A stretch of DNA of 64,000 nucleotides from Tomocerus qinae (lineage: Eukaryota; Arthropoda; Collembola; Entomobryomorpha; Tomoceridae): positions 31,434,513 to 31,498,512 of the forward strand of contig CM034547.1 of the NCBI GenBank assembly GCA_020055645.1, read 5' to 3'. A program made the position numbers and the translations under genes. Below the pieces are notes generated by a model that did no database searches, had not been told where the DNA came from, and saw only the letters and a program-made list of their open reading frames with translations. This document shows, one piece after another, positions 391 to 31,258 of this stretch (its first letter is position 1; every line of letters begins with the position of its first letter).

Positions 391-2737
391 TCATCCTTTT
401 GGTATTCCCAAGGATCTTCCTTGGGCCGTAGATGTACTCTGCGGTGATGTAACTGAGAGATAGTATTCTGCAAACGTTTTCTTCACTCCTGACTTAAGGA
501 AATTAACAAATGTATACCTAATAAAGTCTAATAGAGCTCTTAACTGAATTTCATTTTGATTCACAATTAACTGCTCCTTATCGCAGTCGAAACAATCTAA
601 GACCAACTGCTCTTTTTCCTTAAAAACTTTTAGTAACCTCTCATTTATGGCGGATGTTAAAGAATTGATGAATTTTACAGCGTGAAATTTCATGGTCGTG
701 TTCAAAAGCTTCATCGCGTTGTCCATCATAAGAGTCAATGTGTATATGCTGTGTGATATCTCCTTTCCATCTGGAGATGTTGTATTACCAATGCCTCCTT
801 TCAGTTTCCATTTGTCAACCTGATCTCGATATGCTTCGGAGTAAATAGACAGAAATATCCCAGAAATTACATCGTTCCATTCAGAAATTGAAAAAACTCT
901 TTTCTTTCTGCACAAAAATTAGTTCATTATTTTAAAGATCATGATTTGGATATGGCAATTCGTAATTAGTGTACTTACAAAATCTCATGAGCTAAGTTGA
1001 GCTTGACTCTAAAATTACTTTCAATCGTAACAATCCGTTTTTCAAAAAGCCGCAATGTGTTAGCTTCGATGTCACTACGACATTGACCTCTCAAACTTGA
1101 AAGATAAAGCTCTACTACGGTTTCGGTATTATCTGAAGTGTTTGCTTTCAGTGCTAAGGCTTTTTCATTAGGGCGTTCATATGCACAGGTCAAGATTCCA
1201 GTGTATGGGGTACTATTGTCTTCAAATTTAATATTTGTAGGTTTAGCTTTACTTCCCGGATCAGATAAATTTTTTAATGATTGGTCTTCAGCAAGAAGTG
1301 GGATTTTTACTCTTCCAATATTGAAAAATGATCTTGCTAATCCAATCGTCATATCTTTTGCAATACTTTTAGGAGTAGTTACAGGAGGAGTTAGTGATCG
1401 TCCCTTAGGGGCTACTGTAGTCGGAGGTGGGACAAAAGATCTTCCCATACCTCCAATTGCTTTGACAATTTCTTTAGGTTTAGGGTGTAACATGATACCT
1501 CGGAGGACACGATTATTTTGCTGAATATCAATATCACTAGTCTCATTCCCTGACAATTTGTTCATTTCAATGCATTTGTCGTCTTTCAGAACGCTTCCAT
1601 CTGGACACACGCATTTTCTTCCTTGGAGAACTGATCCCGATTCTGGAGGACAATGGAAATTAACATTTACCAAAGTCTGCATATCTTCACCTTTAGGTTT
1701 ACTGCTCTCCTCTTCGGATTTTGAGTTTTCTCTTTCTATCTTTACGCATTTCCTCCGTACTTTCTTTGTTCCTGTTGGACAGAAGCACTTTCGTCCAACT
1801 AGAACAGCTCCAGAATCTGGGGGACATTTTAATTTAATTCTAAAGCTACTGAAACTTTTTCGATCTACTTTTGTTGCAATATTTGCTTTTGTCGTAGAAT
1901 CGTCGCTGATATTTTGTGCAGCGGGTGGCAACTCCAATTTTAAACTTTCTACAGTGGAAGAAGAAGGTAGATTTGTAGATGGTGTCGATGGTAAAGGTTC
2001 TAGCAACAAGGAATCTTCTAGTTGTGGAAAAAAGGGTAGATCCTTTGTAACAGGATTTTCCGTGATATTCTCAGGTATGCCTCTGCTTGTAAAGAGTGCA
2101 AATGGGAATAAATCCGAATTGCTATCTAATGGTCCTAGATGTTGTCCTGATGTTGGTTCATTGAATTTTCTTACTACAGAATCCAATTTAGAATCATAAG
2201 GACAGAAAGCAGCGACGAAGTTGACATCATCTCTTTTTATGCTAGGATTGTAATTATCCCATTCAACATCGTCTTTTCCATCAATTTGCCTATGAAACAA
2301 AGTTATCACTGAAAACTCTGACCAAAATAATTACTAACTTAGATTTATTACCTAATATATGCCAGATGTGCTGTATAACGTTTTGGATGAGTAACAACTT
2401 GTCGAAGAACAACATAGGTCAAATTTTGATTTGGATGGAGTCCATCCTCTCCCTTGCTGAGAACAATGAATGGATCTCCATTATCGTAATGTTTATTTCG
2501 CAGAATTATTTCCGGATTCTCCTCATTAACGTAAATAGTTACTACATCTGAGTCACCTTTACTTGAATTGTCTTTTTGTAGAAAAATTGTGAAGTCATCT
2601 GGATTCACTGCATTTGCGTCTTTAAAAAACCAACTTTCAGAATTCACAATTAATTGGTAAATTCTATCTGTAACATTTAAGTCTCCTAATGCAACGAGAA
2701 TATAGCTGTTAAATAGTAAGTAGAAAAACGTTAACAT
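391..2737 (-). CDS. S1: secreted orphan-family protein with two 4-Cys modules
   Basis: Three exons, read right to left: 2352-2737, 979-2289 and 391-907, with GT-AG introns of about 62 and 71 bases. They join in frame to give 737 residues. Residues 1-18 form a hydrophobic signal peptide. An N-terminal domain (about 20-129) ends in YTAHLAYIR and is followed by a VEWD segment. The middle is disordered and Ser/Pro/Lys-rich. It holds two copies of a module with spacing C-x12-C-x-C-x10-C (about residues 284-310 and 342-368) and several GRS[FL] motifs. A conserved block containing a LRGQC-like motif leads into a C-terminal helical domain in exon 3 (EWNDVISG, SPDGKEIS, NERLL). It is the first of four minus-strand paralogues. 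I do not recognise the family. The layout suggests an extracellular protein; function unknown. Confidence 0.8.
1572..1826 (-). repeat. Duplicated 4-Cys module inside S1
   Basis: Two copies of a coding repeat with identical cysteine spacing (C-x12-C-x-C-x10-C) and shared sequence CPP[DE]SG, VL, GRKC, CP and KC, separated by about 31 residues. Each copy looks like a small disulfide module, EGF-like or follistatin-like in size, but I cannot assign it to a known fold. It is absent from S2 and S4. S3 has only a few unrelated cysteines in the same linker. Confidence 0.8.
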
Positions 2738-3224
2738 AATTCTATCAAAATATTCACACTAAAAATGAAAATAAATACAATCGGCAGTAATAGGTACTTT
2801 ACATGTTATTGTATGTGTAGACAACTTAATACTTGGCTATGGAAGAGATATTTATTAGCACTACATTTAGCTATATTGGCATTCACTTCCGTGTAATTTG
2901 TTTATGTTTCACAGTCACCCATTCAATCGTAATACTTCAAACGCAATGCTTAATATTGGTTAATGCTTACTACTCGGGGGTGCCCATTCAAGCTCTTCTA
3001 TTTCGAGATTGCTACTTTCAAATTGGCAAATTACATCTTTAGCGTGTATGATAATCATATTTAATGAATATGAATCAAATAATTTCCATTACATTAATCA
3101 TCACAATTTTATCGTACAATACATTATGCTTGTAATTTTGGTATACACTTAATTAGCAGATTTGGTTAGAAAACTTAATTTACATTTGGAATATTTTTTC
3201 CCGCTTTTATTGTTCACTTATTAA
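2738..3224. other. Spacer between S2 and S1
   Basis: About 490 bases between the S2 stop and the S1 start, both genes on the minus strand. It should hold the S1 promoter and the short S2 3' UTR: a minus-strand AATAAA (3206-3211) lies 14 bases past the S2 stop. No other feature seen. Confidence 0.5.
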
Positions 3225-5704
3225 TTAGACATTTTTCCCCGTTAAAATGGGTAGTCGTTTTTGGTAAAATTCCACGAAAGCCGCTTCCATTTCTGGCCCT
3301 TTCTTCTCAAAGTTATCTGCAATGCCAAATATTACAAATTCTTTTAAAGCCCTGATTTGAATACGATCTTGATAGTTTGCATCTTCTTCTTCAGAGCAAT
3401 CTGTGCACATGGATTTTAGTAAACTGGCTTCCTTTAGGCTATGCAAGTATCTCTCATTTAATGCTGTTATTAGAGACTTTGATATTTTCACTGCATGTGC
3501 TTCCAAATCGTGAATGATCTCCATTCCTCTCATGACCATGGTTGTCAAAGTTCGAACACTTAATGATATTTTTAAGGCATCAGGAGAACGGCTGTAAGTT
3601 GCACCGCTGCTTATCAACTCAGCATGGTGCCTATAAGCGTCTGTGTATATGACAAAATATATTGCAGAAATCACTTTATCCCACTGAGTTTTGCTCAACG
3701 TTTTTTTATTACTGCAACCCAAAATAAGATTTAATACTAGAAGATGAAATGAATGTAATAATGCATTGAGATATAATTTTTACTTACTAAATAGAGTTGA
3801 CCATGTTCAGGTCGACTTTCATGTCAGTTCCTAATGTAACCAAATCTTCTAAGAATAAGCCCAGAGTATTTTCCCTGATTTCGTTAAGACATTGAGCTCG
3901 TAGAGTTTTCAATAAGAAGCCCACGAGCTGGGCTTTCTTATCGGATGTGAATTTGAAAAATTCTCCAGAAGATAAAGTAACATTTTCATAGTTGCAATCT
4001 AAAATTCCTGTAAATGGAGAACTTCTGTCTTCGAATGCAGGGTGCCTGGACTTTGGATCATATTGGATAACCATTTTTACATTTTCTTCGCCATGAATTT
4101 TTACATGCTCGTTTCCGCCAATGTTCACCTCATTAATAGGAAGCCGTTCCTCGGGTAGAACAGTGTCATTTAGGCCAATTCTTCCAAAAAACGATGCTAA
4201 ATTACGACCGTGTTTTTGGTATCTCTTTTTCAAATAATCTGAGTTTGAACTTTTTCTGCCATCTCGTCCAATTACATGTTTTGATGTGTCTTCAATAGAC
4301 AGCTCGATAGATGCTGAAGTTTCTTTCGAATCATCAAATATTGCATTTGGGATTATTAAAGGTCTTTTTATTTTGGTAGCCAGTTTATCAATTCCAAGCG
4401 AATGATTCCCTTCATCCTTACTTTCTGATTGATGTTCACTTGGGGGATCCATTTCATCTAAAGTAGGGGATATTTTATTTTGAAACATTTTACTATCTGA
4501 ATTTACACTCGAAGAATTGACATTTTCGCTGACTTGATTATCTAAAGTTGTATTTCCTTGGCTTTGCGATTGATTTTCTCCATTTCCATTGGGTTCGTTA
4601 GTATCGTTAGGGTTTGTTCCTGAATCTCGTTTGTTTTGATTACTTTCAGTGTATTCTGCTTGATTTTTTTCACTCTCATTTTCCTCGTTATCGGTACTCC
4701 TTTTTACCCTTAATGTATACTCTCCCTCATCAAAATAGTATTCCTCCGATGACGTCCATCTCTTAAAACGAAATGGAATTTCCATGTTTGGTCGTCGGGT
4801 AGATAGATCTTCACTTCCGGGAATGTATGGATCTTCCTCCACAGACGCAGAAATTTCCTCGTCATTCGTGGACATCTGTAAAATGGGCACTACCACAATA
4901 ATAGGTTGATTTACTTCAGGTTCTATTTCCTTTTCTAGCTGTGGTTTGGTAACTTCTTTCATAGGCTTAGATTTTAGTTTGGCTACTGCTTTCACGGGTA
5001 TAGGCTTTGGCGGGGGTTTGACAGGGTTTGGCTTTGATCTCTTCCGCCTTCTCATTGCTTTGATTTCTTTCAACTCTTTTTGAGTAACTTTAGGAGATCG
5101 GACTACAGAATTAATTCCGTAAGTGTATGGAATAAATGTTGCAGCAAATACTCCCTGAGGTTCTTCAAAATCTGATCTTAAAGTATCCCATTCAAGGGAC
5201 ACTTGCCCCCGGAACTTTCTGCAAATTAATAAAAACCATTGAAGAGATAAATATACCTTAAATGCTTCAGAAACTAATAATATTAGCTTTTTACCGAATA
5301 TAAGCCAAATGGCCAGTATAATGCTTCGGATGAGACAGTGTTTGTCGAAACACTATGTAAGTCATATTGTCTTTTAGCCCACTTTCACTAGAGTGTAAAA
5401 TAATGACTTTCTCCATAGAATCCATTTGATCCCTTTGATAAAATAAGCTTGGGAACCTTTTGTTAACATATTTGGTAGTTTCGTTAACTCTGTCTATATC
5501 TTGATGATAAATATCATAATTTTCTAAATCACTACTATTGTCAAACCATAGTTCTGATTTGGTTATCAGTTCTATATAGTCATTCGCAGTAATCTTTTCA
5601 GTATTATTAGTAGTAGGGACACTTGGTTCGGGCTCATCCCCAATTGTAGGATTAAAGTTTGAAGAGAAGCTTATAAATGCGAATATTAAGATTTTCCTAT
5701 TCAT
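3225..5704 (-). CDS. S2: secreted orphan-family protein
   Basis: Exons 5295-5704, 3788-5218 and 3225-3711 (minus strand) join in frame to 775 residues, with the same intron positions and phases as S1 and S3. A signal peptide is followed by an N-terminal domain ending HYTGHLAYIR. Then comes VSLEWD, a long Lys/Pro-rich stretch and an acidic, Asn/Gln/Ser-rich disordered region with many potential N-glycosylation sites. Next is a GRN motif and a conserved FEDRSSPFTGILDC block matching S1 (FEDNSTPYTGILTC) with LRAQC. The helical C-terminal domain (QWDKVISAIYF, SPDALKIS, ALNERYL, IQIRAL) is clearly homologous to S1. No known domain is recognised. A secreted or extracellular role is inferred from the signal peptide; its biochemical function is unknown. 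Confidence 0.8.
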
Positions 5705-6484
5705 AATTGAAACACGTAAACAATTAACACTAGAGTTTCAAAAGTTCTGCAGATCATTTGTTTCCATTATCAGTTTAAGTTGAAAGCAAACAGGAACTGT
5801 GCACATGCGTCCTTGGAAGTATTTTTCAAATTATGTGGATGTCAGTGGAAGATTTAAACAATCACAATTTTTTTACGATCCTGTACAAGTTGGTAAATCA
5901 TTATTAGTCAACTATAATATTGAAAGAGAACAGAAGACACTCTTTTGTTTTTAAATTCGATACCTAAGTATATGTAGGTTAATAGGTAATAATAATAATA
6001 TTGTTATGCTGGGGTAGTGTTAGCTAGTGTTAACTAGCCAATAAAGCACAAGCTCAATTTCATATATCCGTATAATAATTTATTCTATTGGGGAAGGTTA
6101 TTGACTCAGGTTTGGTACAGAGAAGTTTCCAAGCTTTTATTAGTAGTAAAAAATAGAATTAATACATAATAAGAAATATCCCAGCCCGATTGTCGTTGAG
6201 CACATTGCATTGTGATATTTTCCTCAGGTCCGTCTTGATGTCGATGGGATACGCATTTTCATAACAGTATACCGGCGATTAAAAATCTTCCATAAAATCT
6301 TACAGAAGGTTATCAATCATGTTCTCAAGTAAGAATGCAATAAGACTGTATTGAAATACATGGCTAAATGAACGATATGGGCATTTTGTGATGACCTGAT
6401 GCATAAGTACTGTGAAATTAAAAATTGTCCCAAAGTCTAAGGAATTAAATTGAATGAACAAGAATTAATTGCAGAAATTTTATT
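5705..6484. other. Spacer between S3 and S2
   Basis: About 780 AT-rich bases with an ATT/AAT microsatellite near 5985-6002. It should contain the S2 promoter. No coding region or recognisable mobile element seen. Confidence 0.5.
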
Positions 6485-8548
6485 CTAATGTTCCAATGGG
6501 GACTTTTTTTCTGCGGCTGCAGTGAGTGCAGCCAATGACTCATTGTACAAATCATCAAATGCAGTATTTACACTTAAATTTTTGGTTAAAATTTCGTCAA
6601 TTTTTTCAAGATTGAGTAATTTATAAAGACAGAGAAGTTGAATACGATCGTTTAAAGTGTTTGGTTCATCATCCTTGTGTTTCAAATTATCAGCGTATTT
6701 CGTTTCTAACATGACTTCGAGTGTTTTGATTAACTTAACTATATGAGGTTCAAATAGCCCCTTGAAATAACGAATTAATTTATGAGTGATTGTTGTTAGT
6801 ATTTCGACAGATGAAGAAATTGGTTTCTTATTTGGAGACAGTGGTGTCCGCTCATTTTCTGCCATTTTTCCAGCTGACTCAAAATATGTATTGGAATATA
6901 CTTTGAAATACAACGCTCCCGAAATATCAGACCATTCTCCCATTCCTGGCGCTTTTATATTGCTGAAATCAAATAAAAAATTGTATTAAAAATTTTTCAA
7001 TTGCAAAATGTTAGTTGCTTTATTAAGATCGTAGTCAGAAAACATTTTCGAAGTATGTCAAGCGCAATGTATCTAAAATATAACTGAATTAATGAGTTTC
7101 TGATTCTGACTTTCTGACTGAAAATAAAAACAGTATCACCAGTGCAGAAATATTAGCATTTACTTCCCTTCCTTATCTCTGGCGAGGACATATGTCTATT
7201 ATATTGAATGCGGTCTCTAAGCTAAGTAGGGTAAGTATTACTTACAATAAAGGATGGTCTGCATTTAGTTCTAAATGAAAGGTTTCATCTGACGTCATTA
7301 TCTTTTTGAAGAACAAATCTTTGATTTGAGCGGTTGCTTGAGGAATGCATTGGACTCTTAAGGTTTGCAAAATGAGAGATATCAATTCATTTTCTCCTGT
7401 CCACTTATGCGGTTTGTCTAAGGTTGTTGGAGGTGGTTCCAATTTCGGACAAATTCCAAATCCGTCAAAAAGAGTTCCCTTTTTTAGATTTGGTAGACCA
7501 AACATGGACCTTCCTTTAGCTTTTTCGTCAGGTTTTTTCCCCTTTCCAAGACAAGGATCTGGTTTGCATTCTCCTCCAGAAGCACAAATGATATGGTTTA
7601 TATTTATTTTGTAGACAACTTTTGGTTGCTTCCTCTTCCTACGCTTAGGCTTTTTGTCTTCTTTGCATTCTGGTGGCAATTCAGCCTCTTCTTCCTCGCT
7701 CTCTTCTTTCTTCTTCTTCTTTTTCTTCTTCTTGGATCCTTTATCTTCTTCTTCCTCTTCAGACTCTTCCTTCTTTTTCTTTTTCTTTTTTGGTACCTCT
7801 TCAGAAGAAGAGTCTTGCTTAACTTTCTTCGTAGGTAAACCTGGTGCGGCCATAATGTCCCTTAAGACTCGGATATTACTAGTATCACCAAACACTGAAT
7901 TTAAAAATGTTTCTGGTGAAAACGCTTTCGCAAAACTCCACTTGTCTTGAGACTCGTCGGACAAAAAGTAATCCCATTCTAGACTAGTTTGACCCTTTAG
8001 CTTTCTGAAAAGAAAATAACGCATTTTAAAATTCAAGGAAATCATACTCAGCTAGACAGCTATTTTTATTATCAGATCATTTATGCATTTTACTTTTTTG
8101 ACAATATCTGCGGAAAACCCATCTACTATTAGTACCTGATGTATACCAAATGAGACGTAAACGTTTTGGTATCATTCAGTCGTCTGCGAAGAACTACATA
8201 CATTGTTTTATTTTTACGAGGAAGATTGTCTTCGCTGGGGTCAAGGATAAAAACATTATCTCCAGAACTTACGTCGTTCCCTGAATGGGAAAAGGTAAAC
8301 GATGGTCGATCGACACTTTTGTAGATCGTTTTTTGGCCATCTAATTCTTGCTTAAATATCTCAAACCCAATTAGATCTTTAGCATCTGAGAAAACCGACG
8401 TGCCAGCCAAAATCAATTGCTTGTGTTCATCAACTGATCTTTTATGATTTCCCGAACAAAGATTAGCTAAAAGTAAAATGAACAAAAGCAGGTTTAAAAC
8501 TTTCTTTGGAAAACTAGCAACCATTATGGATTGCAAGCAATCCAACAA
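6485..8548 (-). CDS. S3: secreted orphan-family protein with Lys/Glu tracts
   Basis: Exons 8136-8548, 7246-8004 and 6485-6962 (minus strand) give 549 residues from the first ATG. A second in-frame ATG at 8524 gives a cleaner signal peptide (MVASFPKK then a Leu-rich core) and may be the true start. The N-terminal domain ends FTSHLVYIR, followed by TSLEWD as in S2. The middle carries two Lys-run/Glu-run blocks, a basic KRRKRK segment, a short Cys-containing patch and KGRSMFGLP. Then come the conserved LRVQC block and the helical C-terminal domain (EWSDISGALYF, ISSSVEILTT, RIQLL). A minus-strand AATAAA directly follows the stop codon, implying a very short 3' UTR. Unknown family and function. 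Confidence 0.8.
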
Positions 8549-9372
8549 GTCTTGTCACAACAGGGATACAGTCTTTACGTCAGTAGTTTATGCATAGATG
8601 TATCTACAAGTTGACAATTAATGGTGACATCTATTACTTTATACGTATTATTGTAGTCTTTTGAATAAGTAGTCCAATGGGTTACTTTTTTCTTAATTTG
8701 TTTTCCGGGTTAGGTTATTAGTCTATTAACACGACCTATCTAAGTAATACATTAACCTTTTTAAATTAAATATTATTATCCCATGCTATTGTGTTTGTGT
8801 TTAGAAAAATGTCACGCATTCATAAATTAGTAGAATACTGCAAGATATGTCACCGTCATAACTTTAAACCATACAGTACTTCATAGACTAAACGTATGGA
8901 AAAATGTTTTTTCTTGCTTGTGATAGTTTAATCTATGACAGTACTTAAAATTATTTAGCTTTAGACATTTGGAAATTATTTTACATGAGTGTATTATTTG
9001 AGTGATTATGCTGATTCATTATCAATAGATACTGTCTTTGGCCTACTATCATGATCTTGCTTTCCATTTGTATATTCTTATTCTTAAGCGTAGAAGCTAA
9101 TGTTACTAAACTTTCTCCAAAAACCGAATTTTTGATTTTGAACATTTAGTTTTTTGATCATTTAGTTTTATTACCGTACTTATTCAGTAGGAGGGATTTA
9201 GGAGACCAATGGGAGATAGTAACAAACATATTCATGAAAAAGCAAATATATGTATACATTGAATATATATTCTATGTGTTTTTATTTCAATGTGAATAAA
9301 CAATTTACATTATAATATTAGAATTCAGTATGGTGTATTAAAATTGTTTTGTACAATCCTCTTATTCATAAT
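8549..9372. other. Spacer between fucosidase and S3
   Basis: About 820 AT-rich bases containing the presumed S3 promoter and the fucosidase 3' end. I see no gene, RNA or mobile element. Confidence 0.5.
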
Positions 9373-12300
9373 TTATTTACCAGCTCCTGTGATTGTCAAA
9401 ACCCATGCCCATTTGGAAGTATTGCCGTCCAGTCTTGGAGTGGTGACAATGATCCCAGGAGAACCATTAAACCACTATAGTGAAGCAAAAATTGTTAATA
9501 ATAATAGTTTGGATAGGCTATCAGCAGATGTCACATTTTAGTTCGCTTTAATTACCTGTAAAGCTCCCGTTGTTCCAATCATAGAAATTCTAAGATTTGC
9601 TGAAGGATTTATGGAGCCGAGTCGAAGGGTTGGGCCTGGCCATGTAGTAAGCATTGCATAAACAGTCGTTTTGCTTTCATTCTGAGTGTACCTTTTATAT
9701 TCCCAAATAGATACAATACAATTAAAATGAAGTGAAAAAATCAATAGCAGATGTAATACACATTATAACAATTTTCAAGCATAGAAAATAATTTGAAGAT
9801 TTTTCAACAGTTTTCTTAACACTCAATAAGTTACAGCGACAATAGCTTACCAGACTCCCGGAGTTACAGTATCATTCTGAACATCATAAGGTATTGCGTT
9901 ATAAATTGCTTCTCCATTAAGGGCGAGCCATTCACCCATTTGCTCAAGACGTTCTTGTTGAATTGGAGGAATCATCCCTTCTCTTGTAGGACCCACATTA
10001 ACCAGAACATTTCCTGTTACACATAACATTCATTAAAATATGCATATCAAACTGTTTCTGAAGGCAAAGATGTTTTATGGTTTATCGACATATACCAACA
10101 CTTCAAATCAAAGTGAGAATATGTTTGGAAGAAATGTACAGAAACTACTATAAGTTATCATTAAAATCTGGAACTAATGTTATCACCATGCATTGCATAG
10201 AAAATAAACAAATTGTTCCAAATCATCTTGTCTAAATACTTTTCATGGGTTATAAATGTACAACATCGTTTTGGCAAACTTCCAATCTAATACACATAGA
10301 CATAAAAATACATTTTCTGCAATTGAATGAAATATGTCACCTCCACATGAAACGGTCTCGATGATAGTTGTCATAAGTTCTTCGGGTGTAAGATAATCTT
10401 CTATAACCGCGTCTCTTCGGAAGCCCCATGACTCTTTATCAAGAGTCATACAGTTTTCCCATTTATGTGGCTGCAATACTCCTGCAAACACATTCTGTTA
10501 GCATTCAGTAAATTCGTATTTACTAACAAATATAGGTAATTGCTACTGACCTGGATTGTAACGATCAGCACAAGTGTAGTAGCCCTGTAATAATGTAATT
10601 AATTATTTATCTACAGCACAAATATGTATTAAAGCCAATCTAGTATATTATGTTCATTGCAAATGGCATCCATTAAGACTGGAGGCAGTTATGGTACTTA
10701 CCCCATGAGTACATAAGGTCTCATGACCCCATCGATCATTTGTGACAACGGTGTCTTTTACAGGGCTGTCGTTGTAGAGCCAAGTCAGAAACTCTTTGGA
10801 CTGCCAGTAAGTATCAGGTGCCTCCCACTCCCCATCTGACCATACAATTTCTGGTTTGTAAGTGTTTACCTGAAAAGTGCAGTAAACATTATTTTTATTT
10901 CTCTACTCATAGTAAGAACACGTAAGAGTAATTATATGCTATACCTTTAAGTATATGCTTACTGCATAATATTACGGAATTTTATGATTGATTTGTTTTC
11001 TAAATGTGTCTAAATGTGTACACGAGTATAATCTCTCCGATAATATCAGCCAATTAGCTACTTACAATTTCATACATCTCTGGGAGTGTTTTGAACTGAA
11101 CGAATTCATCGGTAGTTAAATTATTTTGATTATCATGTATCCACAGGGGATTATACCATTCGTAAAGGGAATGATAAAGTCCGAACTTGAGATCTGTTTC
11201 ATTTCGAATGGCGTCCGCAAGTTGACCTATAAATTGAAGTGTCAGTTAGCGACTGCATTCAAGTATTTGAGTACCAAATGATATAACTGACAGCAAATTA
11301 CTTAATCCTCCCAAAAAACAACAAATGAATCACACACTCCATCGATCATTGTATCTGCTGAACATTTATGCGTAGCTTTACAAATATCAACTTGTTGGAG
11401 TTAATGCACCAGCAAAATTGAGTCTGTATTTATGTTTGTTTTATTTATTTTGTTTGTCAGCTTGACTTAATCAATGGTCCACTTTAAGTGTCAACAGTCC
11501 CACTTTACTTAATTGACCACCACCCACTTACCCTATACACTGAATAGGACACTATATTAATATTATTATAATATCGTGTTGTATATTTAAGGGTCATGCA
11601 TGTCTAAACATCCCAATGCTACAATAGATCAAATTATTCTTGCTTTGCGGAATGTATTTTTACAGTACCTAAAATATCCCGATGAGGACCAACAGCCTTA
11701 GCGTTCCAGCTGAAAGCGAATCTCGACGGCCATAGGGTATATCCTTCATGATGTTTACTTGTTAAAACGACATACCTGAAGGAACATTATTTTGGTTTTC
11801 TGATTAATTTTACATATAATAAAACAGATTAGATTTGCAAATGTAAATTTATCTTAGTACGATGCATGTACATAATATGTAGGTAATAGTAATTGATTTA
11901 GCATATATGGATGTCCGTTTTAAAGAATTTTCTAATCTTACTTTGCACCCGATCTTTGAAATAAATTGGCCCAATTAGATACATTATAAAACTCTGCCGT
12001 GAATTGTGGTCCAAATTCTTGATATGTAAAATTAGGCTTGAAATTCTTTTCCATGAATTCAACATAACGTGGTCTTTGGTCTGTGAAATTATAAATTACA
12101 TCTTAAAGGTTGTAATTGATAAATATGTAATTCTGTTAGATTAGTTAGTCATTTTAATTACCTGTCCATGTCTTCCAAAACCATTCGCTGCCAAATCCTG
12201 GGACGCTGTAAACACCCCAGTGAATAAAGATACCAATTTTACTCTGATCATACCACGCAGGTAACGGTCTGGCATCCAGACTCTCCCAAGTTGGTTCAAA

Positions 12301-12504
12301 TTTGGTCGTGTTTTTCGATTGTTTTACATCTTTTATTTCGGGATGGTGAAGATGGTCTGGGGAATCCACTTCATTCAAAAATCTTTTCTTTGATTCTACG
12401 AACTTTTGTCTTTCTTCATTGTTGTAAGTTATAAAACTACCCTTCGCGAGAATCTCAGCAACTAAGAGGAGACAAATCCAACTGATTTGGAGAATATACT
12501 TCAT
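9373..12504 (-). CDS. Fuca: Alpha-L-fucosidase (GH29), complete, 10 exons
   Basis: Removes alpha-L-fucose from glycoproteins and glycolipids, normally in the lysosome or after secretion. Exons (minus): 12162-12504, 11942-12080, 11669-11775, 11066-11226, 10702-10869, 10551-10584, 10341-10481, 9851-10013, 9556-9691 and 9474-9373, summing to 497 residues, the usual family length. Residues 1-20 are a signal peptide. GH29 hallmarks are present: [33 protein letters not shown], and VWSDGEW, whose Asp (about residue 262) aligns with the catalytic nucleophile. The C-terminal beta domain ([14 protein letters not shown]) is intact. The stop codon overlaps a possible AATAAA. It looks fully functional. 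It separates S4 from S1-S3 but is unrelated to them in sequence. Confidence 0.95.
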
Positions 12505-13683
12505 TCTAAGAAACTATTACGGAAAAATTGGTGTAATTTCAGTCTACTAGTACTTATATATTATTTATATTTGTATGCAGCTACAACAGTTGTCGTTTCT
12601 CACGCTAACGGTGAACTGTCATGCAGTGATTATGTATTAGGTATGTATGTAGAATGGGATAACTAGCTGTAGTCTATGGTAGTGGTACAGCAGTTCAAGC
12701 TAACTTACAGTTAGGGACACGAAAAATGCTTTTATATATAGGGTTGAATGTTCTGAGTGAAACAACTTGTCACGCTTATGAAGCCTAAGCTGATAACCAA
12801 ATAAAAATATTAGATCGCAATATCGCAGTTAATTCAGTAGGAGTATCGAGCTTTACACGTACATAACTAATTTATCCAATTTAATAAAAAGTACCTACTC
12901 ATCATGTCCAGTCTCGTGGTTATGGGTTATGATAATAGATATATGACTAAGAATGACCTGTCCATACGATGATAGATTATATTTTTATGGTGCTGGGAAC
13001 TTTAGAGAAGAGAATGAAGTATAAAAAACCTGAGATTACTTGAAATACGAAAACTTGTTTATCTCAGGAGCTGTCAATCTACCACATATCTATTTATTAT
13101 CTTTATAAGGTTCAATATCTTTCACATATTCATTCTTTTCGGACAGTGCATCTTGGATTAATTGGTGGAATAGTATTTCAATTGTACATTGGTATAAATT
13201 GATGTTACCGTTGCCCATTTTTGTTACACTTTATAAATAGATTATTTGTACAATACAATGAAGAATATGTATGAGTTACAGTCTTACAGTTTTCATGAAT
13301 AATATGAATTTAAGAATTTATTCCTATAAATTAATATTGTAGATTTATTTAACTCTAACTACGGAGTATATTAAAAGTTAATAATATTTATCAATAAATG
13401 TACATACTGTGATGGACTTTTTACCACAACTGGACTATGAAACAAACACACCTACATAGTACTAGTAGTAAATAATAACAAAAACTGGACGTTTATTTCA
13501 TTTTATAATTGGATTACATACACAATTGTACTACGCGTGTCTTTGCATGGTTATACTTTTACTGGATTGGATGGCCAATATTAAACAATCAAATATTTTA
13601 TGTAATTTGTGATTGGTAGTATGAAATACTTTTGCAATTTGCAATGATAATTGCGATTCACTAAGTAATGGAAATAGTACAAC
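12505..13683. other. Gene-free stretch between S4 and fucosidase
   Basis: About 1.2 kb of AT-rich sequence: fucosidase promoter at the left, S4 3' UTR at the right (minus-strand AATAAA near 13492). No ORF with coding character and no repeat recognised. Confidence 0.5.
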
Positions 13684-15238
13684 TTAGTGTGTTGGACGCG
13701 AATATTGACGAGTTTGTCGTTTGCTTACTCTACCCTGGGGCATCGTTCGTCCTCCTTTACGAGTTACCATACTTCCTAGTTTACGACCTTTGGCAGCACT
13801 TTTATCTCCAAGTTTTATAGTGATAAATGTTTCCTCCGAGCCTTCTGCTCCTTCTGCGCCAGGACCTCCTCCTCCACTAGGGCCATTTCCACCATTTGGA
13901 CCATCCCCTTTATTAGGGCCTTTTCCACTTCCGCTAGAACCTGTACCTCCACTAGGACCTACTCCACCTCCACCAGAACCTACTCCACCTCCACCTGGTT
14001 TCGATGACTCCGAGCCTCCTGAGCCAGGTGTTCCTGGCTTTTTATATTCCGATCCATCAGGAATAGTCAAATCCTCTCCAATTGGTCTCTTTGGCCTTGG
14101 GGTTTTTGTGGGGTACCTATGAGTACATCAGCATTCGGTAAAAGTTAACTTTCTTAATAGAAGATATTAATAATATCTTTCCGTTCTTGAGTTAACTATT
14201 TATCTTACAAACGGATATACCCTGAGATACAATTATTATTCCCCTGAAGTAATTTGCTGATATTATAATCTATAGACCATATTATGCTTAACAAACAAAT
14301 CCAAGTCACATTTGCGAATTATTTACCGTGTTCCTCCTTCGGTTTCAGATGGATTTTCGGAACCATCATCTCCTCCCATACCGGGCGGGGGCTCCATAGC
14401 TCTTACTGCTCTTTCTTGCATAGTCGTTATGCAGCACAATAGTTCTACTGCGCCAAACCAGCCGCAATGAGACGCGCTACAAATAGCATCGTTAACAAAA
14501 TTACCACGTATTACTTGAAAGTTAATAAAGTGTGTACAATTTTTAAAAGCAGAAATAATAGATAATGACTAATGGTGGGTAGGTGTACTAAGAATGCGTA
14601 GGAATTGCCATACCTATCCTGTTCATGTTCATGATTTCCAAAAAGTGCCAGAACCATCTCGGCCCCATCTACGATACTGGCTTTGGCGTCAATAAAGTCA
14701 ACATCATCGCTACCACCCAAATTACTAAAAAATGCGGTTTAAAATATTAGAATTGTTGTACAAAGAGTCTAAAGCAATATTTGTTACGGATCTCCTGGGA
14801 ATTTTTAAATAAAATGCCATATACATAAGTGAGAGTAAGTATATTTGAGACTTACTCTATGTATGCAAGGTGCAGGTTATACGTAGAACCTGATTTTTGT
14901 ACAAGACAAGCGAAAAAATATCGATTTTCTTTCGAAAAGTAATCTTCTCCTCTGCTCAAAACAACTAATTTCTCGCCTGTTTTCCCTTGATGTCTTGTGA
15001 ATATCGGATGGGTTTGATCTTCTGTAAGGAAGTAGGAAACTTTGCCATCTTTCTCCACTTCAGTCAGCTCAGCTGGTTCCCCACCTTGAGTTATTTCACC
15101 TATTTTCGCTTCTATCATGGTTACAGCTTGTGTAAATTCCCCATCAGTAAGCATAGCAATCATATTGTCACAAGTAATAATATATATTCGACTATAAATT
15201 AAAACTAAAAATATTTGAAATCGGTTTGTAATTTCCAT
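13684..15238 (-). CDS. S4: divergent, Gly-rich member of the orphan family
   Basis: Exons 14856-15238, 14614-14724, 14327-14476 and 13684-14116 (minus strand) join in frame to 358 residues. Splice choices for exon 3 rest on frame and AG consensus only. The signal peptide and N-terminal domain resemble S1-S3: VVLSRGED aligns with S1 VLSKGED, and the domain ends LHLAYIE. The S1-S3 central exon is replaced by short exons with an acidic DDVDFIDAK segment and a VELLCC-containing segment. The last exon is strongly Gly/Ser/Pro-rich (GGGGVG-like runs), then acidic, then basic with KGRKLGS and SKRQTRQ. The helical C-terminal domain of S1-S3 is missing. It is either a diverged paralogue or a domain-loss derivative. 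Function unknown. Confidence 0.65.
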
Positions 15239-16938
15239 TATAATGGGAATTATTCAGTTTATGCAACTCGATAAACTGAAATTCTCTACGTAGCAATACA
15301 CCAACGGGGAATAGTTGTAGTTCACAATATTCCATAAGAAAACTATTGGCCCATTAGAAGATTATGACGAGAACACAAAGACTTGTTTATGTTCACTTTG
15401 ATGGCTATACGGAAATGAAATGAAAGGTCAAATCAGAGTTAAATAAAATGGTTGTAATATGCACCTCCATTTCATGTCACTAACATATTGGACCTACGAT
15501 TTTATTGGTTTACTATGTACTATAAACTTTGTCTTAGTCAGAAAAATAATAAATAAATTCTACGGAAAATTTGCACCCTAAAAGATCAACGATTCTACAA
15601 TTGCAATTTACAAAGCAAATATTTTTAAATTCAAAGCATACTTATTAGGAAAGGGAAAAATGCACTTTGCATTCGCCCATCTTTAGTCTCGTTGTCACGA
15701 TATTTGGCTGGATGAGACGATAAGAAAGTTACTTGGAAAAGAATAGTCATACTATGTCAATAGCTAACATTATGCTCATGCATCTGCTGAAATGCAAATC
15801 CTGTATTTTTCCAACGCATATGTATGACATATCTACTTCAAATCTTTAAGCATGCAAAAACAGCAGGTCACAGGTCACTGTTAGCGGCATTGGCAGTAAT
15901 AAATGTCTACATGCCTGCAAACATAATGTCTGTTTACTGTGTTCAAATCATATGACATATTTATGACAATGCTGTTACAGATCGTAATTATACAGTACTC
16001 TTTGTATTTTCAATTTGGGATTCTCCATCACTAATTCCTAGAAATATAAGGCAGATTAAGTGAATAACTTGTCAATACTAGTCAATAGTATCTTATCCCT
16101 TAACACGATGGTTCGCACATTGAAAATAATTTTTGCAAATTCTACTTAATATATCTTATTTGCAAATAAGGAAAGTTTGTTATCTCTACTATTTATATAA
16201 TACATTGTACAGAAATATTTTCTAGCTAATTTCTACTTACGTAAACCTGTTGACTGGAAGAAGTTGTTATTATGGTATTATCATGTTAGATATGAGGATA
16301 AGAAGCAACTTTAACCTATGTTATCTTATTATGATTAGTTAGTATCTTGTACTGCTATAACTTCTCACAGATGTCTTATTTACCTGATTAATATGTTGGC
16401 CTTAATGCAATGCTATAAATATAAGTTTATGATCAAGTCTTAGAGGATTGATGACATAATGTGTGTAAATAATATCGTGAATTTATAATATAGTGTACAA
16501 TTGAGACAAAAAGGACCATTACATAGTATACTTTACCATTTATCTTTTAGAAGCTATACGTGGTATTTATTTTATGGTGTACTATGTAGTAATAATACTT
16601 AACCTCTGACATGATCCTGACCCATTTGATTGAGAACAGAATTAAACTATATTGAAACATAGTCAAGATATTCTTGTAATTATGAAATCATTTCTACTTT
16701 GACTTTGACTTTGATCAGTCTGATGAGTCAAGTGTTTGAATTGTTTTCTTGTAACTAATATATATTTAGGAGAAAAATTAATTCTCAATATATAGTTGGT
16801 GTTGATAAGTGAGTGAGTGAGTAGTTTATAGTGCGGTGGGGAGTCAGAAAGACCTCAACTCAAATTGCATATCTAATCCTAAGTAGACTTTACTTAGGAA
16901 AATATTATTGGTCTACAAGTTACTATTAGACTAGAAAC
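15239..16938. other. Intergenic region upstream of S4 and esterase A
   Basis: 1.7 kb between two divergently transcribed genes, so it should hold both promoters. The right-hand part (from about 16170) is duplicated upstream of esterase B. No coding region seen. Confidence 0.6.
16170..16938 (+). repeat. Promoter-proximal duplicated block, copy A
   Basis: This flank matches 23735-24530 in order and spacing, with small indels. Shared landmarks include a 'ttgactggaa' stretch, 'cttgtactgct', 'gtcaagatattcttgtaatt', 'tagtgcggtggggagtcag' and the last bases before the ATG. The duplication that produced the two esterase genes therefore included several hundred bases of 5' flank. Confidence 0.8.
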
Positions 16939-21564
<4,626 letters not shown>

Positions 21565-23734: not shown

Positions 23735-24530
23735 GTTATCTTATCTCTAGTATTTATATGCACAGAAATAATACCTATACTCTATACGTAAACCGGTTGA
23801 CTGGAAACTGGAAGTTGTTATAATGATAGGTTTGAGATCCTATGTATGTGTATGAGTGTATGATAGAGTAAGAAAGCAACTTTAACCTATGTTATCTTAA
23901 CTTATGATTAGTTTGCGTATTCCAATGCCAAGTATCTTGTACTGCTACAACGCACAAATGCCTTGTTTACCTGATTGATATGTTGCCCTTAATATAATGC
24001 TTTAATTATCAGCTTATTATAAAGTCTTAAAGATGTTTGATGATGCAATGCGTGTAAATAATATCATGAATATAAAGTACAATTGGGATAAAAGGACCAG
24101 CAACAGCATACATGCATAACCACTTTTCATTATTTACTAGACACACTATATAGCAAGTTGTATTTACTTTTTAGTGCGCTAAAACTACATAACCTCTGAC
24201 ATTATCCTGATCTGTTTGATTGAAAACAGAAACTACATTGAGCCATAGTCAAGATATTCTTGTAATTATGAAATCATTTCAACTTTGACTTTGATCGATC
24301 TGAGTCAAGTGTCTGGCTCAAAGTGATTGAAATGTTTTCTTATGTAATTAATGTATTATTTATGACTAAAAATAATTATTTTCAATATATAGTTGATGTT
24401 GGCAAGTGAAAGAGTGAGTAGTCTATAGTGCGGTGGGGAGTCAGTAAGACCTCAAACTGCATTTCTAACCCTAAGCATACTTCACTCAGGAAAATATTCT
24501 TGGTCTACAAGTTACTATTAGACTAGAAAC
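23735..24530 (+). repeat. Promoter-proximal duplicated block, copy B
   Basis: Counterpart of 16170-16938, directly upstream of the esterase B ATG. The last about 120 bases, including 'tagtgcggtggggagtcag' and 'ctagaaac' before the ATG, are the best conserved. Confidence 0.8.
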
Positions 24531-27500
24531 ATGGAAATTAAAATTCAAGCTTTGAATTTTACTTTTCTAGGCGTTTTGTTACTTTTCTCATCTCTATCTT
24601 TAGAAATTGAAGCGAGAAGAAGGAATAGCGCTTATAACAGATGGAGATCCCCATCAACACACCAACAAGGAGATGTTTCTCAAACCGGAGGATTTGATTA
24701 CGAACAATCACCCGATTTTTCTAATATCCAGGACTATGACAATTGGGACAAAACCGCTCGGAATCGCCAATATCAAAATATTGACGACGATGATGGTAGA
24801 CAACATTCCGTCGACGATCCTGAAAGTTGGGAAGAATTTTCTCATATCTACCAAAACAGGCAGAGAGAATCAACCACAAGATACCCTACAAGAAATAGGT
24901 TCGGAGGCAATCAAAGAACAAACTTGCCGAAACCTCAGATTCAACCACCACAATACATCGCTTCAAGTACGACTACAACTCCCGAGACTCCAATTATAAC
25001 TATAGGATTAGAGGAAGTGTCATCGACTACTGAGATTCCGCAGCCACATGATGGTCCAGAGACTACTACTGATGCAGGAACCTTCAGAGGAAAAATCGTT
25101 AAGTAAGGACTAATCATTCTTTATTCCTTCCTTTTCACAAATGGAAGTATGGGTTTTCTCCAGCATAGTTTTAAAATATATTGCATATTACAAGTTGTGA
25201 CAAAAATGTGTATTATCAAATCTGTACAGAAAGTTTATTATAAAAATAATTTTCATTTCTTTCTACTGATTTTATTTATGTAATTTGGAACGTAATCAAA
25301 ATTCATGAGAGTTAAATTCTGATATTGCAGAACTCCAACTGGGAAAGATGTAGTGGCGTTCTTAGGTAATGTTCTTACAATTTGTACATTACATAGTACT
25401 AAACGCATTAAAAATATGATTGTATGAAAATATTAATATTTTCTTAGGTATTCCATTTGCTAAACCTCCAGTCGGGGATCTCAAGTTTAAAAGACCAGTT
25501 CCAATGGACAAATTGAAAACTCCTTACAACGCTATGAATCTGCCAAATGCTTGCTTCCAGGTACATTTGTGTGCAATTACATAGCAAATATTAATAATTA
25601 ATTAGCACAAAAGCACACAATGAACATTGATGATCTGAAGTTCTTAAAGTTTCGATCGATGAAAGTAAATAACTTTTGCCTACATAGAGTCATTTCGAGT
25701 CATTTCCAGACAACCGAGGAGAGGCCCAGTTTAACCCGAATACAAATATATCTGTGGATTGTTTGTACCTAAACATTTGGATCCCTGCTTCTGTTTTTGA
25801 AGAAAAGGAGAACAAACTCGCAACAGTTATGTTTTGGATTTATGGCGGAGCATATTTCAGTGGAAGCAGTGCCCTTGATATTTATAATGGAGCCATATTG
25901 GCCTCAGAAAATGAAGTTATTGTCGTGTCCACTCAGGTACATTTACCTAATAAATGATTAGAATTATTAAGTTTTAGCATTCTAATCTAGTCGTATTGTA
26001 TTAGAAAATATATGCATACATAAAATATAGAAAATAGATTAGAAATGAATGTTTTTGTATCTATTTTTACAAAGTATCGATTGGGCCCGCTTGGATTTCT
26101 CTTTTTCGGGACAGATGATGCTCCTGGAAATGTCGGTTTACTCGACCAGGCCCTTGCATTGAAATGGACTAATGAGCATATAAAACACTTTGGGGGCGAC
26201 AGTGTAAGATCCTTATCTAGAATATTTATGGGTATAACGTTTAATTTTTAACTAGTAGGATCGATTGTTTAGAATTCCATCACGTTGTTTGGTGAGAGTG
26301 CGGGAGGTGCATCAACTTCTTTCCACTCTTTGTCTCCACTGTCAAGGACGTTTTTCAAAAGGTCCATTTTGATGTCAGGAGTTTCGCCCGCTTCGTGGGC
26401 TGTTAATACTCCAAATAAAGCACGTGAAATTTCTTATAAACTAGCCAAACTTGCTGGGTGTGATACTAAATCGGTACGTTTAGTCAATTCTACACAAAGA
26501 AATATTTATGTTTACTAGAGTTTTATTTTATAATCTCATTTTGATGTAATATCTGTGATATTGATATTTGAAACAATGCTCACATATTTTCAGTGCTGGA
26601 ACATTGTAGAAAATATTTATTGTATATTCTAAACAGTCTCCACAGTCAATTATAGCCTGCCTTAGAGAAGTAGATCCTAAAAAGCTAGACACCCTTCAAT
26701 GGGAGCTTACCGGTGGTCAAATTTTGTCTTTTGCATTTACACCGACTGTAGATGGGTACTTCCTCCATGATATGCCCATAAACATAGTTGGCACACGTGA
26801 TGCTAAAAGACATGAAATACTCATTGGTATTGATAAAGACGAAGGTAATGAAACATGGTTACTCACCTTCATATATTTATAATAATAGTATTCCCAACGA
26901 ATATACAAACTGTATGAAAATTCTGTTTCAGGGACTTATTTTCTTTTGTATCAGTACCTCAATTACCTCAGCGATAAAAAAGCCACCAATATTCCTTTCG
27001 ACAAATACATTGATATGATGAAGGAAGTTTTTCAGTTTTACAGTGACTTCGAAAAAGATCTCATCATCAACTATGTAAGCTAAACTATTATACTACAATC
27101 AATTTACCAAAAATAAAGTTTGAATTGAATTGAATAATTAATGCAATTGCAGTACACTAATTGGGAGAATCCAAATGACGGCTACAAAAACCAAAAAATC
27201 ATTTCACAGGCCATTGGAGATTTCTTTTTCAATTGTCCCTTAAGACGATATGCTGACATTTGGTCAAATAGAGGACTTAAAGTATTTTTCTATCAATTTA
27301 CCCAGGTAAGTTGATTTTGTTAGGTTAGAATAATAACATTTGCAATTTTGCTTTTAAACTCTAAATACGTAAATGCGGAAATGAAAATTATTAATTTAAT
27401 TTCTAGCGTACGTCTACTAACCCTTGGGCAGAATGGATGGGGTAATGATCAATCAAAATATTCAGCTTATCGATTGATGTAAATGAATGTCATAGTAAGA

Positions 27501-28547
27501 GTAAGACAATGTCATTTTAATTGTTAGTGTAATACATGGAGATGAAATTGAATACGTATTCGGAGAGCCTTTAAAGAAACCGGATTTATTTACACCCGAA
27601 GAAGCAAATCTAAGTAAACATATGATGAAGCTATTTTCTCAATTTGCAAAAACAGGGTATAGGCAATTGAAAATGTATTATATATGTATTGAAGCTACTT
27701 TATCATAGTAATAAACTTTCACCTTTTCTTTGTAGAAATCCTTCGCCCAATTGGGATAGGTATTCGAGCGAGGCTCCCATTTTTGTTGAATTAAATGCAA
27801 AAAATTTGTCCGCTACAACTTCGGAAGACAGATATGGTCCAGATGCTAACAACTGTGCCTTTTGGAATGAAATCCTACCTTCCATCCAGAACAAACTCTC
27901 CAGTGAACAAGAACAAAATGATAATCAAAATTCAAATAGATTTAACCGTCCAAGTTTTAGATCCTCTAAGCCTGTATACAGAAGCAATCGTCAGAATAAG
28001 AGACGCATCCAGAAAAATGAAGATTCTCAGTGCAGTCGCTATCATAATTTAGATTCCCATGGCCAAGAAGGTAAAATTTTGATAGTGTACACTCTATAAT
28101 ACAAAATTATATCACATTTCTAACCACACCTGTTTAATTATAGCATAATATGATATGTATATGAGAAAAACATGTATACCTAGGTATATATGTAATTGAA
28201 AACGGTCACATTCCGTAGAACCCGAGTTAATTTGTCCAAAAACTCGATCTAATCATTTGCAGCTTACACTCTCATTAGCTTACCCTCGGGGTCAACTATT
28301 AATATTTCGCCAACAATTCTAGCGTTAGCGTTTTAGGGAATAGAGAGACATGTTACCTTTGAATATTTTCTTTTGAATAGGATTGGGATATAGATACTAT
28401 CAACATCAACCTCGACGACAAAGGACCCAAAACTGTGAAAGCTTTTGTGAAAACTATTCGTCATCATCTGTGGCTTCTACAACCACCACGATACCTTTCC
28501 TCGATCCAACGAAACTGAGTACTCCAGCTCCACCAACTTCTGACTGA
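24531..28547 (+). CDS. Acetylcholinesterase-like secreted esterase, copy B
   Basis: Thirteen exons at the same positions and phases as copy A (24531-25102, 25331-25365, 25448-25560, 25700-25936, 26075-26203, 26273-26473, 26637-26844, 26932-27074, 27153-27305, 27407-27441, 27528-27656, 27736-28070, 28381-28547) give 818 residues. The signal peptide and linker are almost identical to copy A. The triad is intact (Ser371 GESAG, Glu498 KDEGTYF, His612 [11 protein letters not shown]). Two AChE-diagnostic positions differ: the choline-site Trp is Phe (F251, AQFNPN) and the third oxyanion Gly is Ala (A291, YGGAYF). SEDC is also changed to SVDC. It is probably an active esterase with altered substrate or inhibitor specificity; loss of true AChE activity is inferred. 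Confidence 0.9.
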
Positions 28548-30155: not shown

Positions 30156-31258
30156 ATTGATATTTTCGTTCTGTGAATTAGAGTTCAGTTATGATATTTT
30201 TAGAAATGTAATTAAGATGTTAGATTGAATAAAATGAAAAATAAACATACTTTTACAATTTCTCAAGGTGTGAATTTTGCAGAAATAAATCTTGATAGCT
30301 ATGTGTAAATACTGATGTTCAGGGCTGGGGGCGGTTTATTTGTTGAGTTGAGTTAAAGCAATGGTAATTTTCCATTCGATGGTCCTGTTAATGTAGTAAC
30401 ATACTATTTATATAACACAAAAAATTCTATAAGCAGTTTCACTAAGTTTTGTGGGTACAATGTGTAATTCAGTCCAGTCTATCAGCTTCAGCTGCAAATC
30501 AGTCAATGATAAGTGCATGGTGATACATGTAAATGTAAAATGGTTATATAATATGCTGACCTTGAATTTTCAATATGAATCGAAATGTTATGCATGTGTT
30601 CTTACGGTAAGCAATCTTGTGATACAAATGGTTCCCAATGTGTTTGCCTCCTGCACACTTATATTATCTATAATCAGTATGATTATTTTATGTATTGTAT
30701 GATTATCATGATTTTCTGCATTTAAATGTTTGGATATAAATTACATAAAGTCTGATATATGTCCAAATATATAATGGGTAGAGAAGTATTGAAATAAAAT
30801 GATGTTTTTGTTTCAGGTAAGTGTATGTAACACCTTTTACCGTTTCAACATTTTTGAATTGCATCAAACGACAAATAATTTTGTTTTCTCGGTTTGTTTA
30901 AATTACTTATGCAATAAATAGATAGTCATTAGGATATAATGTATTATGCTAATCAGAAGATACTGTTTGGGTGTCAGCATTTCATCACATTATAACTTTT
31001 ATTTAGGTGATGATAACTTTTCCACCATATACCTGGCAGTGGCAAGAGGAACACTTGAGATTTCCTATTGTATCGAACTTTTTATTTCGTATTGCAAACG
31101 AGGAATTCACCCAATTGTCAATGATATATTATTATGACACTCCATTACAAACTTGATGAATTTTATGAATAATTAATTCGCAATAGATAGGATTGAGAAG
31201 TTAGCCAGTATAATAAGCTAGTCTATTTATTTTTGGCTACATAAATAATTTTTTGAAA
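30156..31258. other. Spacer between EcKinase 2 and 1
   Basis: About 1.1 kb AT-rich. The right part of EcKinase 1's 5' UTR and a putative UTR intron fall near 30156-30290. Small plus-strand ORFs here have no recognisable content. Confidence 0.5.

What the first reader, a model, noticed from the sequence alone, without database searches (positions are those of the whole stretch)
391..15238. Tandem family of secreted proteins with conserved ends and hypervariable middles, not assignable to a known family
S1, S2 and S3 share intron positions and phases, a signal peptide, an N-terminal domain ending H[LV][AV]YIR, an LR[GAV]QC block and a helical C-terminal domain (EW.DVIS.., ALNERYL, IQ.RAL). The middle exon differs completely between copies: Cys modules in S1, Asn/Ser/Glu-rich in S2, Lys/Glu tracts in S3, Gly-rich in S4. 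Conserved ends with freely evolving linkers suggest extracellular scaffolding, secretion, cuticle/egg, immune or reproductive roles. This is the best candidate for an undescribed system here.
Basis: partly seen in the sequence, partly recalled or inferred. Interest (0 to 1): 0.75.

Follow-up and report, generated by a model that had tools for sequence, protein, structure and literature searches.

The report
Springtail secreted proteins with swapped middles
The four genes are part of a real, large and apparently undescribed family of secreted proteins in a soil arthropod (probably a springtail), with conserved ends and freely changing, sometimes silk-like middles, so they may be building blocks of an extracellular material.

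Summary
S1-S3 share two phase-2 introns, an N domain (S1/S2 33%, E 7e-21) and a C domain (38%, E 8e-40). S4 has only the N domain. Searches of the window's own 334 Mb genome gave 29 N-domain exons (4 in the window) and 29 full or nearly full C-domain exons (3 in the window), plus one frameshifted copy, on four large contigs. For 28 of 29 N exons a C exon lies downstream on the same strand, 25 within 11 kb. Profiles without window sequences still find S1-S4 (N, 36-48 bits) and S1-S3 (C, 49-96 bits); the best shuffle scores 12.4. Ten close domain pairs show dN/dS 0.06-0.35. No credible match appeared in Pfam, NCBIfam or PDB sequences; the C domain is modelled as five helices without a significant PDB fold match. 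Middles range from Lys/Glu- or Asn/Ser-rich to silk-like repeats in a few members. Best reading: caps on interchangeable spacers of extracellular matrix or glue proteins, probably of a collembolan. The family is shown; function and host are inferred. Expression and other species were not testable.

The parts
391..907 (-). S1 exon 3: C-terminal helical domain and stop
   Evidence: model; 37% identical to S2 exon 3
979..2289 (-). S1 exon 2: end of N domain, variable middle, block with LRGQC (1080-1094)
1572..1652 (-). S1 second four-Cys module; 16 of 27 residues identical to the first
1746..1826 (-). S1 first four-Cys module (C-x12-C-x-C-x10-C)
   Evidence: EB, TIL and EGF-like Pfam matches only below cut-off
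2352..2737 (-). S1 exon 1: signal-like segment and N domain
3225..3711 (-). S2 exon 3: C-terminal helical domain; modelled at pLDDT 84
3788..5218 (-). S2 exon 2: N-domain end, Lys/Pro then Asn/Ser/Glu-rich middle with dibasic sites, LRAQC block (3889-3903)
5295..5704 (-). S2 exon 1: signal-like segment and N domain
6485..6962 (-). S3 exon 3: C-terminal helical domain, divergent
   Evidence: 48.7 bits with a held-out profile
7246..8004 (-). S3 exon 2: N-domain end, Lys/Glu tract (7686-7790), LRVQC block (7347-7361)
8136..8524 (-). S3 exon 1: signal-like segment and N domain
13684..14116 (-). S4 exon 4: Gly-rich tail (13858-13995; up to 42.5% Gly in 80 residues), no C domain
14327..14476 (-). 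S4 exon 3
   Evidence: model, phase-2 junctions
14614..14724 (-). S4 exon 2
   Evidence: model, phase-2 junctions
14856..15238 (-). S4 exon 1: signal-like segment and N domain
   Evidence: 36.4 bits with a profile of 23 sequences from outside the window

Best explanation
S1-S4 belong to a family of secreted proteins built like capped polymers. A signal peptide leads into a small N domain of about 150 aa. A spacer of variable length and composition follows. A C-terminal unit ends the protein: a short block ending in LRT.C or LR.QC, then a five-helix domain with a Cys pair in 12 of 14 members aligned. Shown: the family, its gene structure, constraint on the ends, and no known domain found. Inferred: the end domains associate after secretion (disulfides or dimerisation), and the spacer sets the physical property of an extracellular material such as a matrix, glue, silk-like thread, cuticle layer or egg/spermatophore coat. 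In nearly all copies checked the intron after the N domain and the intron before the C domain are both phase 2, so whole exons between them can be changed without shifting the frame of either cap. I think this is how the middles diversify, but that is inference. S4 is an N-only, Gly-rich offshoot.
For: Census: 29 N exons and 29 full or nearly full C exons plus one frameshifted; 28 of 29 N exons have a same-strand C exon downstream. Two N exons first seen without a partner (C2:40975907, C5:4324383) later gained C exons on the expected side. Held-out profiles recover the window copies. The donor is phase 2 after the N domain in 25 of 27 N exons by script and in one more on reading the printed line, shifted one residue; the exception is a fragment. 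The acceptor is phase 2 in the 28 of 28 C exons listed. The 3 N and 2 C exons found later were not checked for this. dN/dS is 0.06-0.35 in 10 close domain pairs. Gene C1:113852-113859 holds tandem arrays of 15-120 bp units (22 overlapping rows in 3.4 kb) and 51% Gly in its richest 80 residues; S4 reaches 42.5%; an unspliced ORF between the N and C exons at C1:105679, not part of my script model, reaches 57.5%. These pass the Gly threshold for silk-like proteins in PMC4944945 (passages).
Against: S1, S2 and S3 do not pass the Gly rule (11.3, 10.0 and 12.5%), and only 2 of 17 proteins tested do, S4 and C1:113852. Mean low-complexity fraction of the 16 modelled middles is only 0.19, against 0.09 for N (signal peptide included) and 0.025 for C; strong repetitiveness is confined to a few members. 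S1-S3 keep at most one Cys of the N-domain pair that is present in 7 of 7 outside members aligned, so a shared disulfide mechanism is doubtful for them. No expression, localisation or assembly data exist here. The N domain could not be modelled (pLDDT 43). S4 has no C cap, so a two-cap mechanism cannot apply to it.
Confidence: 0.42

Rival explanations
1. Fast-evolving reproductive or seminal/spermatophore proteins: the ends keep the fold while the middles diverge under sexual conflict.
For: Large copy number, recent tandem and dispersed duplicates, hypervariable middles. Springtails use external spermatophores (recalled).
Against: The end domains are constrained (dN/dS 0.06-0.35 in 10 pairs). 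No sex or tissue data. It may overlap with the best explanation, since spermatophores are extracellular materials.
Confidence: 0.2
2. Immune or microbe-facing secreted effectors in a soil animal.
For: Secreted, multi-copy, diversified middles, Cys modules in S1.
Against: No immune or antimicrobial family appears in the Pfam scans of S1-S4, 14 C domains and 11 N domains. Silk-like repeats in some members do not fit.
Confidence: 0.15
3. Proprotein precursors: the conserved ends help folding and the middle is cleaved at dibasic or GR[SA] sites into active pieces.
For: GR[SATV][LMIVFW] occurs 16 times in 23 middles (in 13 of them) against a mean of 1.5 and a maximum of 5 in 500 shuffles. S2 has several RR/KR sites.
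Against: The motif was chosen after looking; one middle was entered twice and one pair is near-identical, so about 14 are independent. The middles are too variable to encode conserved peptides.
Confidence: 0.12
4. Artefact: chance ORFs and wrongly joined exons.
For: No RNA evidence was available; middle exons outside the window come from a script that allowed only phase-2 introns and was given the outer splice sites, and it added spurious tiny exons to some genes, S3 included.
Against: Held-out profiles, N-C pairing, constraint and conserved splice sites.
Confidence: 0.02

Closest known systems
Spidroins and insect fibroins
   Same: Layout: signal peptide, conserved non-repetitive N and C caps, variable or repetitive middle; helical C cap (the spidroin side of this comparison is recalled).
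   Different: No silk domain among the Pfam matches; no significant PDB match for the C cap. The N cap is suggested as helix plus strands at low confidence, whereas spidroin N caps are helical (recalled). S1-S3 middles are not Gly/Ala repeats.
Silk-like structural proteins (SLSPs) as defined in PMC4944945 (passages seen)
   Same: S4 and C1:113852 have a signal-like N terminus and at least 25% Gly in an 80-residue window.
   Different: That class is defined by composition, not descent; 15 of the 17 proteins tested do not meet it.
EB / TIL / EGF-like Cys modules
   Same: S1 middle has two four-Cys modules.
   Different: All such Pfam matches are below the curated cut-off.
Arthropod cuticle, chorion and Osiris families
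   Same: Secreted, multi-copy families (recalled).
   Different: None of these families appears among the Pfam matches of S1-S4 or of the 25 N- and C-domain rows scanned.

Membership tests
Spidroin/fibroin | Known silk N or C cap domain in Pfam | tested here: not met
   none among the matches
Spidroin/fibroin | C-cap fold similar to a solved silk C domain | tested here: not met
   324 matches at E<=10, none at E<=0.001, best 0.44 (CINP); a weak match could be missed
Spidroin/fibroin | Repetitive Gly/Ala-rich core | tested here: inconclusive
   met in C1:113852-113859, not in S1-S3
Silk-like structural protein (PMC4944945) | At least 25% Gly within 80 residues | tested here: inconclusive
   S4 and C1:113852 of 17 proteins pass; S1-S3 do not
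Silk-like structural protein (PMC4944945) | Signal peptide, no transmembrane helix | tested here: inconclusive
   hydropathy only: best N-terminal 12-residue mean 1.67-3.18 in 17 proteins, no later 19-residue mean above 1.79; SignalP and TMHMM not available
Silk-like structural protein (PMC4944945) | Component of a biological material | not testable with these tools
   no proteomics
Cuticle, chorion, Osiris proteins | The respective Pfam domain | tested here: not met
   none among the matches
EB/TIL/EGF module proteins | Module above Pfam cut-off | tested here: not met
   EGF_Tme5 13.2 (cut-off 22), TIL 10.9 (24.5), EB 9.2 (24.3)
The family described here | N domain with phase-2 donor after YI, and C domain with phase-2 acceptor | tested here: met
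   S1-S3 meet both; S4 meets the N half only

The most novel reading that the evidence does not exclude
A springtail-specific superfamily of about 30 extracellular structural proteins uses two undescribed cap domains and a frame-neutral (phase 2-2) exon cassette in between. Selection can therefore swap whole material-defining middles (charged, Asn/Ser-rich, Cys-rich, Gly/Ala silk-like) while keeping one assembly mechanism: a silk-like system that arose independently of spiders and insects.
Probability: 0.3. Interest if true: 0.78.

Novelty: new variant of a known kind. Interest (0 to 1): 0.55.

Why it matters
Two conserved domains that match nothing in the Pfam copy searched, each in about 30 genes of one animal, are a substantial gap in annotation. 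If the caps do assemble extracellular material, the family gives a natural series of different spacers on one scaffold. That would make the molecular basis of collembolan secretions (spermatophore stalks, collophore adhesive, cuticle, egg coats) directly testable.

Tried and rejected
Host as a geophilomorph centipede: considered because contig C1 is 42% of the assembly. Rejected because the genome holds DNA photolyase exons (9 matches), whereas Strigamia maritima is reported to have none (passages of PMC4244043; its karyotype in passages of PMC4769173). Neopteran insect: disfavoured, with one weak 7tm_6 match, E 9e-6. Collembola is favoured by 19 DIOX_N exon matches; that IPNS carries this domain is recalled, and penDE-like and isopenicillin genes in Collembola were seen in passages of PMC8138834. 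Tomocerus qinae is suggested by an assembly size and N50 that I recall; I found those figures in no paper held (listings; passages of PMC10432511 and PMC12693562; Jin 2024 not held). The host therefore stays unproven.

Viral or prokaryotic origin: single-protein pattern scans found no relative in IMG/VR or in prokaryote genomes. Spidroin-type C cap: no fold match. S4 as a full member: rejected, N domain only. PADLOC on 14 C domains: one weak match to one member. Papers: four searches on the motif, on springtail silk or secreted families and on orphan families were seen as listings only; nothing in the titles and abstract starts listed describes this family. Most subscription journals are not held. 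PMC11170834 (passages) concerned centipede glue and is not used.

Results that weaken the reading: low overall repetitiveness of the middles; failed N-domain model; the C model rests on three sequences, and its five models range from pLDDT 66.6 to 84.1; three N-C pairs lie 29, 43 and 86 kb apart (C2:4437/4408, C1:3387/3430, C2:2902/2816), are counted in the 28 and may be separate genes; two C exons have no N found (C1:69510, C1:9529). A search with S4 alone finds only S4. S1-S3 by themselves form one group in only 42% of bootstrap trees. The held-out profiles contain no window sequence, but their members were first collected with window-seeded searches; the N set of 23 includes one fragment. 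The five exons added were not run through the profiles. Some script gene models contain spurious tiny exons, so outside the window I rely on the end domains and long ORFs.
Full report
What was reported. I rebuilt the genes from the sequence. S1 has exons 2737-2352, 2289-979 and 907-391; S2 5704-5295, 5218-3788 and 3711-3225; S3 8524-8136, 8004-7246 and 6962-6485; S4 15238-14856, 14724-14614, 14476-14327 and 14116-13684. All lie on the minus strand with GT-AG introns, and every intron in these models is phase 2.

Homology inside the window. S1 and S2 match over 185 aa at the N end (33.5%, E 7e-21) and 235 aa at the C end (38%, E 8e-40). S3 matches both at both ends (E 2e-11 to 3e-17). S4 matches S1 only at the N end (E 2e-5). 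No middle matches another middle (database size set to 1,000,000).

The family in the genome. The window is C2:31434513-31498512 of a 334,443,149-base assembly in 115 contigs. Eight protein searches of that genome were answered, and profiles were run over the fetched pieces. C-domain exons: 27 full or nearly full in the profile run (3 in the window, 24 outside) plus 2 more, that is 29; one further copy appears frameshifted (C1:9529278) and one is a fragment (C1:9516643). N-domain exons: 26 in the profile run (4 in the window, 22 outside) plus 3, that is 29; one more is a fragment (C1:12261027). They lie on contigs C1, C2, C4 and C5 (24-140 Mb), some in clusters of two or three. For 28 of 29 N exons a C exon lies downstream on the same strand, 25 of them within 11 kb and three at about 29, 43 and 86 kb; S4 is the exception. 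Counts are lower bounds, because the tool scores only its best candidates.

Controls. An N profile from 23 sequences outside the window (one a fragment) scores S2 47.5, S3 46.3, S1 45.2 and S4 36.4 bits; the best of 20 shuffles of 1,452 window ORFs scores 12.4. A C profile from outside sequences scores S2 95.7, S1 79.0 and S3 48.7; the best shuffle scores 10.8. These outside sequences had first been collected with window-seeded searches. Two N exons that had no partner (C2:40975907, C5:4324383) were later found to have C exons in the expected place. The donor after the N domain is phase 2 at the same residue in 25 of 27 N exons by script, and in one more on reading the printed line (shifted by one residue); the exception is the fragment. 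The 28 C exons listed all have a phase-2 acceptor. In 10 close domain pairs dN/dS is 0.056 to 0.349; the S1/S2 comparisons are saturated. A tree of 27 C domains puts S1, S2, S3 and C1:104931 together with 99/97 support; S3 and C1:104931 are long branches, and S1-S3 alone are one group in 42% of bootstrap trees.

Anatomy of the wider family. In the N alignment the 7 outside members continue in exon 2 with an EW[DE] motif and a Cys pair of the form C..S..(I/V)PC or near it; S1 keeps one Cys there, S2, S3 and S4 none. A block with G.G.C and LRT.C precedes the C exon in many outside members, and S1-S3 carry its LR.QC form. A Cys pair in the C domain is present in 12 of 14 rows, missing in S3 and C1:104931. 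An acidic DL[DE] motif was found 10 times in the middles (no control), and GR[SATV]-hydrophobic 16 times in 23 middles against 1.5 in shuffles, maximum 5. Both motifs were picked after looking; one middle was entered twice and one pair is near-identical. Middles differ strongly: S1 two four-Cys modules, S2 Asn/Ser/Glu-rich, S3 Lys/Glu tracts, S4 Gly-rich, C1:113852-113859 arrays of GGAPNNGP, NNGGG and GGGNAxSNA units, and an unspliced Gly/Leu/Asp ORF at C1:105679. Mean low-complexity fractions are 0.09 (N), 0.19 (middle) and 0.025 (C) over 16 models, so strong repetitiveness is limited to a few members.

Known families. Pfam on S1-S4 gave only matches below cut-off. On 14 C domains and 11 N domains each Pfam match was to one member only. 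NCBIfam on three pieces gave only matches below cut-off. PDB sequence searches gave E 0.57, 0.064 and 0.39 at best. AlphaFold2 on the exon-3 alignment of S2, S1 and S3 gave a five-helix model (best pLDDT 84, pTM 0.80; the five models range 66.6-84.1). Foldseek found no PDB match at E<=0.001 (best 0.44) and none in BFVD (best 0.35). The exon-1 N model failed (pLDDT 43), with helices and several strands suggested. Pattern scans of viral and prokaryote contigs found no relative.

Host. The genome has photolyase exons, one weak 7tm_6 match and 19 DIOX_N exon matches. This argues against the geophilomorph centipede I first suspected and fits Collembola. The assembly size and C2 length equal figures I recall for Tomocerus qinae, but I could not find them in print here, so the species is a recalled lead.

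How it probably works. Shown: secreted-type N termini by hydropathy, conserved caps under constraint, free middles between phase-2 introns. Inferred: caps assemble, middles set the material, exon cassettes diversify without frame cost. A structural extracellular role is my first choice at about 0.4; reproductive, immune and proprotein readings remain open. S1-S3 themselves are not silk-like in composition, so for them a matrix or scaffold role is more likely than a fibre.

Noticed in passing
window 9296-12513, minus strand: A probable multi-exon GH29 alpha-L-fucosidase gene sits between S3 and S4 on the same strand; only its N-terminal exon was tested (PF01120, 6e-20).
   Followed up: partly
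window 16859-20793 and 24451-28024, plus strand: A tandem duplicate of a carboxylesterase-type gene with an unusual Asp/Gln/Thr-rich leader exon; eight repeat pairs are 86-97% identical.
   Followed up: partly
window 28887-35981, minus strand: A row of four long ORFs that look like ecdysteroid kinase-like (EcKL) genes; one was tested (PF02958, 8e-34).
   Followed up: partly
window 59144-59424 and 60212-60492: Inverted repeat, 281 nt arms 98% complementary, 787 nt apart, overlapped by a 40-bp-period array at 59369-59688; may be a mobile-element remnant.
   Followed up: partly
own genome C1:120031248 and 18 other places: 19 exon matches to DIOX_N, one in a 374-aa open frame, possibly horizontally acquired dioxygenases.
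   Followed up: no
own genome C1:68.32 and C1:68.73 Mb: Two family copies with 99% identical N and C domains 0.41 Mb apart: a recent duplication or an assembly duplicate.
   Followed up: no
own genome C1:9514220-9517657 and C1:9527931-9531167: An apparently frameshifted family copy and C-domain fragments: likely decaying duplicates.
   Followed up: no
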